Positions 56,003 through 57,941 of a DNA stretch of 64,000 nt are shown in pieces. The translations under genes and the position numbers were made by a program. Positions within the stretch are counted from its first letter, which is position 1. Each line of letters starts with the position of its first letter. The notes beneath the pieces were generated by a model that was not told where the DNA came from, made no database searches, and was given only the letters and a program-made list of their open reading frames with translations. Source of the stretch: Acidisarcina polymorpha (GTDB lineage Bacteria > Acidobacteriota > Terriglobia > Terriglobales > Acidobacteriaceae); assembly GCF_003330725.1 (NCBI RefSeq), contig NZ_CP030840.1, positions 992,001-1,056,000 of the forward strand. The letters run 5' to 3'.

Positions 56003-56050
56003 GACAGGCCAGTACATAGGCCAGTACATGGCAATGAGCACTGGCCTGTC
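56003..56050. terminator. Bidirectional terminator with 12-bp tandem repeat
   Basis: GACAGGCCAGT pairs exactly with ACTGGCCTGTC across a 26-base loop, between the convergent TPR and sulfur-carrier genes. Inside, AGGCCAGTACAT is present twice in tandem (56006-56029), so two alternative stems are possible. Confidence 0.55.
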
Positions 56051-56069: not shown

Positions 56070-56429
56070 TCAGATGTCGCAGAGACAATTCTCGCGTCCA
56101 CAGTAAGAACAGCAACTGCAGAGTGATGCACCCAAGGCGTTAAGGCAAGAGGAGGATCCTCCGGCGATGGAAGGGATCACCAGTACCTCATCGCCATCCT
56201 GAAACGAATACTTCTCGTTCCCTAGAAACCGGATGTCTTCGTCGTTCACATAAAAGTTGATAAACCGTCTTAATTGACCGTCGCTATCGCGAAGATGCTG
56301 TTTGAGCGCTGGGAAACTGACTTCAATCTCTTCGATCAGTTGGGGGAGATTAGCCGCCTTCGACTCGATTTCCTTGGCGCCATTCGTGTGCTTCTGAAAT
56401 GCATTTGGCAGTAAAACTCTAACGGACAT
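56070..56429 (-). CDS. MoaD/ThiS-family sulfur carrier with Cys-rich tail
   Basis: A 119-aa ubiquitin-like protein starting MSVRVLLPNAFQKHTNG with GGAGGAG upstream. Residues 1-91 match MoaD/ThiS/CysO carriers: RRFINFYVNDEDIRFL, then SFQDGDEVLVIPSIAGG. In standard carriers Gly-Gly is the C-terminus and is made into a thiocarboxylate. Here 28 more residues follow (92-119) with seven Cys (95, 104, 106, 107, 110, 115, 117) and no stop, so a protease must cut after Gly91 if it works as a carrier. Its start overlaps the threonine-synthase-like gene by 11 bases, and both lie behind a SAM riboswitch. It may donate sulfur to that enzyme. The tail could also bind metal. Confidence 0.88.
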   Translation of the reverse strand: MSVRVLLPNAFQKHTNGAKEIESKAANLPQLIEEIEVSFPALKQHLRDSDGQLRRFINFYVNDEDIRFLGNEKYSFQDGDEVLVIPSIAGGSSSCLNALGASLCSCCSYCGRENCLCDI

Positions 56430-57714
56430 ACTCTCCTCCAACTAATTCGCCCGACACCATATCGTCAACGACAATCCCGCGCACCTCATGCTGAGCGACA
56501 AACTCCTCAAAGTCAGCCATTCGCGGACGAATTGTGCGCTCTGCTTCATATTTGCCGGCTAGTGCGTCGGTGGTCTTCAAGCCGTTCCCGGTAATGCAGG
56601 AAACCGTTACATCGTCGGGCGAAATTCGGCCATGAGCATAGAGCCGGGCAGTTACTGCGGTGGTGACTCCGCCAGCCGTCTCGGTAAAGACGCCCTCGGT
56701 TTCCGCCAATTCTTGAATGGCGGAGACGATCTCGACATCGGAGACATCTTCCGCCCATCCGCCGCTGTCCCTGATCGCGCGCGCCGCGTAGGGCCCGTCA
56801 GCCGGATTGCCGATGGCGAGCGACCGCGCAATGGTATTGGGGCGCTGGGGCTCGATGATGTCACTGCCAGCCTTGACGGCGGTCGAGATAGGCGAACATC
56901 CGGTGGCCTGCGCGCCAAAGAAGCGCACCTGCTTCTCCGCAACTAACCCGAGTTCGACCAATTCCTTAAATGCCTTGCGAATCTTGGTGATCAGCGAGCC
57001 TCCCGCCATCGGCACGACGACATTGTCCGGTAGTCTCCAGCCAAGCTGTTCGGCGATCTCGTAACCGACGGTCTTTGATCCTTCGGCGTAGTAGGGCCGG
57101 AGATTGACATTCACGAATCCCCAATGGAAACGCTCAGCAATTTGCGAACTAAGACGGTTCACATGGTCATAATTTCCTTCAACTCTTACCAGGGTTGCGC
57201 CGTAGACCTGGGTGTTGAGGATCTTTGCCGGCTCGAGGTCGGCTGGGACGAGGATGTAGGTCTTGAATCCCATTCGCACGGCTTGAGCGGCGACGGCATT
57301 TGCCAGGTTGCCGGTCGAGGAGCAGCCTACCGTGTCGAAGCCAAAGATCTTCGCGTTCGCTAACGCCACCGACACTACCCGGTCTTTGAAGCTCAGCGTC
57401 GGCAGGCACACCGCGTCGTTCTTGATGAACAGGTTCTTGGCGCCGATTCGCTTTGCCAACCGCGGCGCTTCGAGGAGCGGAGTCCAACCTGCGGGAGTGG
57501 GAGCAGCGTAGTCTTCAGGTACGGGGAGCAGCGATTGATAGCGCCACATGCTCGCAGGACCTCCTGCGATCGACTCCCGCGTAAACGTCCGCTTGGCAGC
57601 GTCCATGTCATATACGACTTCCAGCGGCGAAAAACATTCGTCGCAGCTCGACAGCGGGTCGTTCTTGAACCGTTTGCCGCAGTCTCGACAACGCAACTCG
57701 TAAGCAACAGCCAT
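56419..57714 (-). CDS. thrC: Threonine-synthase-like PLP enzyme under SAM riboswitch control
   Basis: A 431-aa fold-type II PLP enzyme starting MAVAYELRC after GAGGGTGAC. An N-terminal zinc ribbon has C9, C12, C24 and C27. The PLP Lys is K110 in LPTLSFKDRVVSV; the phosphate-binding loop is SSTGNLANAVAA and the cofactor wall VPMAGGSLITKI. The family makes threonine from O-phosphohomoserine. Two things argue for another or additional role: the leader carries a SAM-I riboswitch, which normally controls methionine and cysteine genes, and the gene overlaps a sulfur-carrier gene, as in CysM-CysO and MetY-HcyS pairs. I infer a possible O-phosphohomoserine or O-acyl sulfhydrylase making homocysteine from a carrier thiocarboxylate. 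Plain threonine synthase remains possible. Confidence 0.87.
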   Translation of the reverse strand: MAVAYELRCRDCGKRFKNDPLSSCDECFSPLEVVYDMDAAKRTFTRESIAGGPASMWRYQSLLPVPEDYAAPTPAGWTPLLEAPRLAKRIGAKNLFIKNDAVCLPTLSFKDRVVSVALANAKIFGFDTVGCSSTGNLANAVAAQAVRMGFKTYILVPADLEPAKILNTQVYGATLVRVEGNYDHVNRLSSQIAERFHWGFVNVNLRPYYAEGSKTVGYEIAEQLGWRLPDNVVVPMAGGSLITKIRKAFKELVELGLVAEKQVRFFGAQATGCSPISTAVKAGSDIIEPQRPNTIARSLAIGNPADGPYAARAIRDSGGWAEDVSDVEIVSAIQELAETEGVFTETAGGVTTAVTARLYAHGRISPDDVTVSCITGNGLKTTDALAGKYEAERTIRPRMADFEEFVAQHEVRGIVVDDMVSGELVGGEYVR

Positions 57715-57832
57715 GTCACCCTCGATATCCGAGAGCGCCAATAGACGGGCATTCGTGACGAACTCAACACGTCAAACACAAACTGGAAATAGCGAGATGC
57801 GATCTAACCTAGCACTACAGTTAGGCACCCCG

Positions 57833-57941
57833 AATCTCATGTTCCCCACAATTGGGAGAGAGTTGACACCGCTTCCTGAATTGCTCAGACCGGTTGTCGT
57901 GGCGTCACAGGGCCCGTCCCTCAGCCACTCTTCATGAAATT
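57833..57941 (-). ncRNA. SAM-I (S-box) riboswitch
   Basis: The minus-strand leader contains the S-box core: AGAGTGGCTGAGGGAC, GGGCCC, TGTGACGCCAC and ACAACC. P1 closes with AATTTCATG pairing CATGAGATT (one G-U pair). P2 is GTGGC/GCCAC, P3 ACCG/CGGT with an inner CTGA/TCAG, and P4 TCCC/GGGGA. The order and loop sequences match the SAM-I consensus I know. A downstream hairpin, CTAAC/GTTAG, lies before the gene start and may be part of the expression platform. It is about 120 bases before the threonine-synthase-like start, so high SAM should lower expression of that gene and the sulfur carrier. Confidence 0.9.

What the first reader, a model, noticed from the sequence alone, without database searches (positions are those of the whole stretch)
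56070..57941. SAM riboswitch controls a threonine-synthase-like enzyme coupled to a sulfur carrier
The leader folds as a SAM-I riboswitch (P1 AATTTCATG/CATGAGATT, core GAGGGA and GGGCCC). S-box switches normally control methionine or cysteine genes, not threonine synthase. The first gene is a ThrC-like PLP enzyme with a zinc ribbon; the second, overlapping by 11 bases, is a MoaD/ThiS carrier. By analogy with CysM-CysO and MetY-HcyS this could be a thiocarboxylate-dependent route to homocysteine, perhaps from O-phosphohomoserine. The riboswitch and gene overlap are seen; the reaction is inference.
Basis: partly seen in the sequence, partly recalled or inferred. Interest (0 to 1): 0.85.

Follow-up and report, generated by a model that had tools for sequence, protein, structure and literature searches.

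The report
SAM-switched MetM-MetO homocysteine synthesis genes
A soil bacterium carries a recently discovered way to make the methionine precursor homocysteine, a threonine-synthase look-alike paired with a small sulfur-carrying protein under a SAM-sensing RNA switch; the system is known, but here the sulfur carrier ends in a conserved cysteine-rich tail whose role is unknown.

Summary
A SAM-I riboswitch (73.8 bits, the only one found in the genome) precedes a ThrC-like PLP gene that overlaps a CysO-like carrier gene by 11 bases. The window protein groups with a MetM-like clade that includes an actinomycete protein, apart from both of its own genome's ThrCs. SAM-I was found upstream of metM in 54 of 79 further loci scanned. 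Among 15 family genomes MetM and strong MetX hits coincide only in the window's genome, so MetM is not its sole possible route; MetA was not searched. Less expected: the carrier's GG is followed by 28 residues closing in CCSYCGxExCxC. Twenty distinct carriers share this module with strong protein-level constraint, and a pattern for it occurs in 21 of 200 family genomes, always at the 3' end of the carrier gene. Most likely a JAMM protease removes the tail before sulfur loading; what the cysteines do is unknown. A known kind with a carrier variant; no reaction was tested.

The parts
57834..57940 (-). SAM-I (S-box) riboswitch aptamer
   Evidence: Rfam RF00162 73.8 bits, full model; only SAM-I match in the genome
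57718..57736 (-). candidate expression platform: local hairpin that holds the likely Shine-Dalgarno GAGGG
   Evidence: Seen when the leader downstream of the aptamer is folded but not in the lowest-energy fold of aptamer plus leader; 10 of 100 mononucleotide shuffles fold as well; no terminator-like site and at most 3 T in a row between aptamer and ATG. Only suggestive.
56419..57714 (-). metM: ThrC-like PLP enzyme with N-terminal zinc ribbon, predicted O-phosphohomoserine-dependent homocysteine synthase (ATG 57714; TTG 57741 also possible)
56070..56429 (-). metO: ThiS/CysO-like sulfur carrier, overlaps metM by 11 bases
56073..56156 (-). 28-residue C-terminal tail of MetO after the GG
   Evidence: pLDDT below 50 for residues 89-115
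56079..56114 (-). conserved CCSYCGxExCxC module of the tail
   Evidence: 20 of 20 distinct tails with at least 4 cysteines carry it; pS 0.76, pN 0.091; pattern in 21 of 200 family genomes, once each

Best explanation
This is a metM-metO operon of the kind described in Streptomyces. When SAM is scarce the SAM-I riboswitch lets metM and metO be expressed; when SAM is plentiful it shuts them off, perhaps at translation. MetO is made as a capped precursor. A JAMM protease, such as the mec-like one encoded next to the genome's second carrier and an E1-rhodanese enzyme, cuts after the GG; the E1-rhodanese enzyme then thiocarboxylates the freed end. MetM, using PLP, replaces the phosphate of O-phosphohomoserine with the carrier's sulfur to give homocysteine. 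Shown here: riboswitch, gene pair, grouping with MetM-like proteins, conservation, the capped terminus, and the presence of protease and E1 genes. Known elsewhere: the MetM reaction in Streptomyces and JAMM uncapping of other carriers. Inferred: the reaction in this organism, the protease and E1 that act on MetO, and the mode of switching.
For: SAM-I upstream of metM in the window and in 54 of 79 further metM loci scanned, including the actinomycete Nonomuraea gerenzanensis. Of 34 MetM genomes among 149 of the phylum, 19 have SAM-I within 370 bases upstream on the same strand and 2 more at 2.3-2.4 kb (read off). A carrier follows metM within 400 bases in 70 of 80 loci. Two quick trees put 110 MetM-like rows, the Nonomuraea protein included, on one side of a branch with SH-aLRT 100 and the ThrC rows on the other: 11 rows with one own ThrC, 10 rows with both own ThrCs. 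The genome has thrC-thrB and another ThrC. In 15 family genomes MetM (12, one partial) and strong MetX (4) coincide once (one-sided p 0.009 without correction for kinship). A JAMM gene with an HSHP motif, a second carrier and an E1-rhodanese gene lie together at C1:1715-1717 kb. MetM is described in PMC12172450; uncapping of carriers by JAMM proteases in PMC6006322.
Against: The window's genome also has a metY-metX pair. All 15 family genomes have a strong PF01053 enzyme, the family that includes MetB, MetY and MetZ, and MetA was not searched, so other routes in the MetX-less genomes are not excluded. 25 of 79 loci show no SAM-I at the gathering score (six of these hold at most about 210 bases upstream), and 13 of 34 MetM genomes had no SAM-I match anywhere (stricter filters). 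Phylum-wide the MetM/MetX exclusion is weak: 3 both, 31 MetM only, 30 MetX only, 85 neither (p 0.024, uncorrected). A Microcystis homologue acted as threonine synthase and deaminase in vitro, and no rise in methionine was seen in cells with high ThrC (PMC12172450). No protease gene is next to metO in the window, and a 28-residue cap is far longer than the one- and two-residue caps in the precedent read.
Confidence: 0.85

Rival explanations
1. It is a threonine synthase (or threonine synthase/deaminase) that happens to be SAM-controlled; the carrier serves something else, such as molybdopterin synthesis or tRNA thiolation.
For: Generic profiles call it thrC; the best PDB matches are threonine synthases; a MetM-like protein of Microcystis made threonine from O-phosphohomoserine and deaminated threonine in vitro (PMC12172450).
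Against: Two other ThrC genes exist, one next to thrB. Residues R215, Y218, L146, G316 and G358 (counted from TTG 57741) are the same in all 110 MetM-like rows and in none of 10 ThrC rows. SAM control, the adjacent carrier (70 of 80) and the family's MetX pattern point to methionine.
Confidence: 0.08
2. A MetM/MetO system that is a second, redundant or specialised route in this genome, homocysteine coming mainly from MetX-MetY.
For: metY (PRK08248 729.3 bits against 726) and metX (PRK00175 369.2 against 331) lie side by side; the window's genome is the only one of 15 family genomes with both MetM and strong MetX.
Against: The only SAM-I in the genome is on metM, not on metYX, so the SAM-regulated route is MetM. 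The MetX match is below the cut-off of TIGR01392 (364 against 500), as are all matches, controls included. This rival differs in physiology, not in what the genes are.
Confidence: 0.4
3. The carrier's tail is a functionless extension left after loss of a stop codon.
For: The linker between GG and the module varies in length and sequence (3 to 28 residues); the tail is predicted unstructured.
Against: Picking tails only by length (5-60) and cysteine count (at least 4) gives 20 distinct tails, and 20 of 20 end in the module, with no near-variants; pS 0.76 and pN 0.091 in the module are like the carrier core.
Confidence: 0.05

Closest known systems
MetM/MetO of Streptomyces albulus (Hasebe et al. 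2024, not held; as described in passages of PMC12172450)
   Same: ThrC-like enzyme with a SAM riboswitch upstream, and a carrier of the MetO kind (that metO lies just downstream of metM in Streptomyces is recalled from the abstract); an actinomycete metM with SAM-I and an adjacent carrier groups with the window protein
   Different: the window's carrier has a 28-residue cysteine-rich tail after GG, while the actinomycete carrier fetched ends in GG; the genome also has MetX-MetY.
CysM/CysO/Mec+ of Mycobacterium tuberculosis (passages of PMC3227635)
   Same: PLP enzyme uses an O-phosphorylated amino acid and a carrier thiocarboxylate; MetO's best PDB matches are CysO-like
   Different: the enzyme is ThrC-like, not a cysteine synthase; the mec-like gene lies elsewhere, beside another carrier
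HcyS/HcyD/MetY homocysteine route of Wolinella (recalled, not read here)
   Same: carrier thiocarboxylate as sulfur donor for homocysteine
   Different: uses an O-acetylhomoserine enzyme of the PF01053 fold, not a ThrC-like enzyme
Capped sulfur carriers PtmS2 (GG-MV) and PtmS3 (GG-C) with JAMM protease PtmS1; QbsD in thioquinolobactin synthesis (passages of PMC6006322)
   Same: residues after GG that a JAMM protease is thought or shown to remove
Operons of a ThiS/MoaD carrier, E1-rhodanese enzyme and JAB (JAMM) peptidase (passages of PMC1779556)
   Same: the genome's second carrier locus has this make-up
   Different: metM-metO itself has no protease or E1 gene beside it

Membership tests
MetM/MetO | ThrC-like PLP enzyme grouping apart from threonine synthases | tested here: met
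   110 MetM-like rows (window and Nonomuraea included) against 11 ThrC rows and against 10 ThrC rows with both own ThrCs, one branch, SH-aLRT 100 in both. Quick trees with long-branch warnings; labels set by bit score to the window protein; S. albulus MetM not available.
MetM/MetO | sulfur carrier gene adjacent to metM | tested here: met
   11-base overlap in the window; within 400 bases in 70 of 80 relatives, farther in 4, not found in 6
MetM/MetO | SAM riboswitch upstream (reported for S. albulus, lacking in Microcystis, so not universal) | tested here: met
   73.8 bits; 54 of 79 other loci
MetM/MetO | O-phosphohomoserine to homocysteine with the carrier as sulfur donor | not testable with these tools
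   needs an assay
MetM/MetO | free or exposable C-terminal GG on the carrier | tested here: inconclusive
   GG present but followed by 28 residues; a JAMM gene exists in the genome, cleavage not shown
SAM-I riboswitch (RF00162) | score above Rfam's gathering threshold over the full model | tested here: met
   73.8 against 44.4 bits, positions 1-108
Threonine synthase (ThrC) | groups with ThrC rather than MetM | tested here: not met
   it does exceed the general TIGR00260 thrC cut-off
CysM/CysO cysteine synthase system | carrier paired with a cysteine-synthase-type enzyme and mec | tested here: not met
   best profiles are ThrC; the mec-like gene is at another locus

The most novel reading that the evidence does not exclude
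The conserved CCSYCGxExCxC tail makes MetO a gated sulfur carrier: the cysteine module binds a metal or carries a persulfide, and so controls when a protease exposes the GG, or passes sulfur on within the carrier system. Homocysteine synthesis would then be controlled twice, by SAM at the RNA and by metal or sulfur status at the protein.
Probability: 0.2. Interest if true: 0.7.

Novelty: new variant of a known kind. Interest (0 to 1): 0.42.

Why it matters
It extends the recently described MetM/MetO route, with its SAM riboswitch, to many Acidobacteriota and makes it a candidate main homocysteine route in the window's family: 11 of 15 sampled genomes have MetM (one cut off at a contig end) and no strong MetX hit. 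Profiles name such genes threonine synthase. The cysteine-rich cap on the carrier is a concrete, testable puzzle about how such carriers are activated.

Tried and rejected
Carrier matches in open frames of about 490-520 residues were first noted as MetM-carrier fusions.

A transcription terminator was looked for and not found between aptamer and start (3 terminator-like sites in 2.4 kb, 2.5 expected). A Shine-Dalgarno hairpin was tested over 72 loci: at least 4 of 6 bases paired in 39; at most 5 of 100 mononucleotide shuffles as stable in 18; 10 of 100 in the window. The leader alone folds no better than its shuffles (z -0.39). In the fold of aptamer plus leader (z -1.11) the Shine-Dalgarno pairs with the aptamer region instead. 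Kept only as a suggestion.

Hasebe et al. 2024 is not held: what is said of it rests on passages of PMC12172450 and, where marked, on recall. No paper held Acidobacteri-, SAM riboswitch and methionine together. A search on carriers with cysteine-rich or C-terminal extensions listed five papers whose titles and abstract starts do not concern such a tail; one was opened for passages. So 'not described' means not found in these searches. Passages of PMC12452182 and PMC9506716 gave nothing on this system.

Limits of counts. The 20 tailed carriers were picked by the motif itself, which makes its fixed positions invariant by construction; one search repeats the choice by length and cysteine count and finds the same number, 20 of 20. 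One search has 120 carrier rows, one per locus, some of which are the same gene fetched twice: 13 end at GG, 67 have 1-4 residues more, 40 have 5 or more. The pattern covers only TCN serine codons and a glutamate at position 8. One of its 21 hits (G240) lies in another frame than the carrier, so 20 genomes have the tail in frame. The family Fisher test counts G112, whose metM is partial, as MetM-positive; the phylum test counts it negative, as it misses the E-value limit. One search used stricter filters.

Full report
What is there. On the minus strand a SAM-I riboswitch (57834-57940, 73.8 bits) precedes a ThrC-like gene (56419-57714, taking ATG as start) that overlaps a small ThiS-family gene (56070-56429) by 11 bases. 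It is the only SAM-I match in the 7.6 Mb genome. The enzyme keeps the lysine of SFKDR, the PLP lysine of this fold (recalled), and four zinc-ribbon cysteines. The carrier's best PDB matches are CysO-like carriers (names partly recalled).

What it is. Passages of PMC12172450 report that Hasebe et al. 2024 found a homocysteine synthase, MetM, in Streptomyces, that MetM converts O-phosphohomoserine to homocysteine, that S. albulus has a metO similar to a carrier gene next to the Microcystis homologue, and that S. albulus metM has an upstream SAM riboswitch. The primary paper is not held; from recall, its abstract places metO downstream of metM and shows thiocarboxylated MetO as sulfur donor. An actinomycete metM fetched here (Nonomuraea gerenzanensis, 52% identity) has a SAM-I (68.7 bits) and a carrier just downstream that ends in GG. 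In a quick tree of 121 proteins one branch (SH-aLRT 100) parts 110 MetM-like rows from 11 ThrC rows. Only one of the genome's two ThrCs was in that tree. A second tree of 120 proteins, with both own ThrCs and without two long rows, again has one such branch at 100. Both trees warn of long branches, the Nonomuraea row and the own thrC among them, and the labels came from bit scores. Five positions are the same in all 110 MetM-like rows and in none of 10 ThrC rows (R215, Y218, L146, G316, G358, counted from TTG 57741).

Conservation. A carrier follows metM within 400 bases in 70 of 80 related loci, is farther in 4 and was not found in 6. SAM-I reached the gathering score in 54 of 79 distinct metM loci scanned (18 of 20, 13 of 20, 8 of 20, 15 of 19, where one locus was given twice). 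The other 12 of the 80 loci were not scanned. Six of the 25 misses hold at most about 210 bases upstream, and in one hit (L087) the switch lies 1.1 kb upstream. Of 149 genomes of the phylum, 34 have MetM at E at most 1e-95 and 54 have SAM-I. Read together, 19 of the 34 have SAM-I within 370 bases upstream on the same strand, 2 more at 2.3-2.4 kb, and 13 had no SAM-I match. In the window's family, the 11 sampled genomes with full-length metM each have SAM-I there, and the three with MetX but no MetM have no SAM-I match.

Pathway context. The window's genome has thrC next to thrB (both above NCBIfam cut-offs), another ThrC (PRK08197, 528.9 bits against 303), a metY-metX pair (PRK08248 729.3 against 726; PRK00175 369.2 against 331, though TIGR01392 is missed, 364.7 against 500), a cystathionine beta-lyase and cysK above cut-off, and a further PF01053 enzyme below the cut-offs shown. 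At another locus lie a JAMM protease, a second carrier and an E1-rhodanese enzyme. Across the 15 family genomes of the sample MetM occurs in 12 (one partial) and MetX at over 360 bits in 4, the next best match being 139.5 bits; only the window's genome holds both (p 0.009 uncorrected). All 15 have a strong PF01053 enzyme, and MetA was not searched. Across 149 genomes 3 hold both, 31 MetM only, 30 MetX only and 85 neither (p 0.024). So MetM tends to stand where MetX is missing in this family, but adds to it in the window's genome.

The carrier's tail. Loading such carriers with sulfur needs a C-terminal GG (PMC6006322). Here GG is followed by 28 residues ending CCSYCGRENCLC-DI. Among 34 distinct tails of 5-60 residues, 20 have at least 4 cysteines, and all 20 carry CCSYCGxExCxC, behind a linker of 3 to 28 residues. 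Over its 12 codons pS is 0.76 and pN 0.091; over the last 60 core codons they are 0.66 and 0.086. So the module is translated and held by selection. A degenerate DNA pattern for its start occurs in 21 of 200 family genomes (8 of 79 genera), once each, always at the end of the carrier gene, with no match of the reversed pattern; in one, G240, it is in another frame than the carrier. Many other MetO proteins carry one to four residues after GG, often with a cysteine (67 of 120 rows). The predicted structure has a confident beta-grasp core and pLDDT under 50 for residues 89-115. Carriers with one or two residues after GG that need a JAMM protease are described in PMC6006322 (PtmS2, PtmS3, QbsD), and a JAMM protease that cuts a MoaD-MoaE fusion is cited in PMC11237513.

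How it most likely works. SAM binding represses expression. No terminator-like site lies between aptamer and start, and the likely Shine-Dalgarno can sit in a local hairpin. That hints at translational control but is no better than chance for the window and is not in the lowest-energy fold of the whole leader. MetO is uncapped, thiocarboxylated by the E1-rhodanese enzyme and used by MetM on O-phosphohomoserine. Riboswitch, genes, grouping and cap are shown; the reaction, the protease and the E1 partner are inferred.

Verdict. Not found in the papers searched: the spread of the SAM-I-metM-metO unit in Acidobacteriota, its near-exclusion of MetX in one family, and the conserved cysteine-rich cap of the carrier.

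Noticed in passing
G000 C1:1715297-1717284 (L152:4298-6285): A separate cluster of JAMM protease (HSHP motif), second sulfur carrier ending GGK and E1-rhodanese enzyme; likely the shared loading machinery.
   Followed up: partly
G000 C1:6147143-6149880 (L151:4144-6881): A metY-metX pair in the same genome, the only one of 15 family genomes with both strong MetX and MetM; the longest metY frame runs about 80 residues before the matched domain.
   Followed up: partly
L022, L027, L029-L033: In other Acidobacteriota the CysO-like carrier lies in one long open frame that ends in a rhodanese-like sequence, apparently a fusion to an E1-rhodanese enzyme.
   Followed up: no
L215 (G240 C5:516914-517227): In one genome the CCSYCG module lies in a different frame from the carrier; assembly error or decay.
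   Followed up: partly
window 56003-56050: An inverted repeat with GACAGGCCAGT/ACTGGCCTGTC arms lies between metO and a convergent TPR-protein gene; possibly a shared terminator.
   Followed up: no
L108:118-3098: In a Thermodesulfovibrio contig metM and metO are followed by a second ThrC-like gene on the same strand.
   Followed up: no
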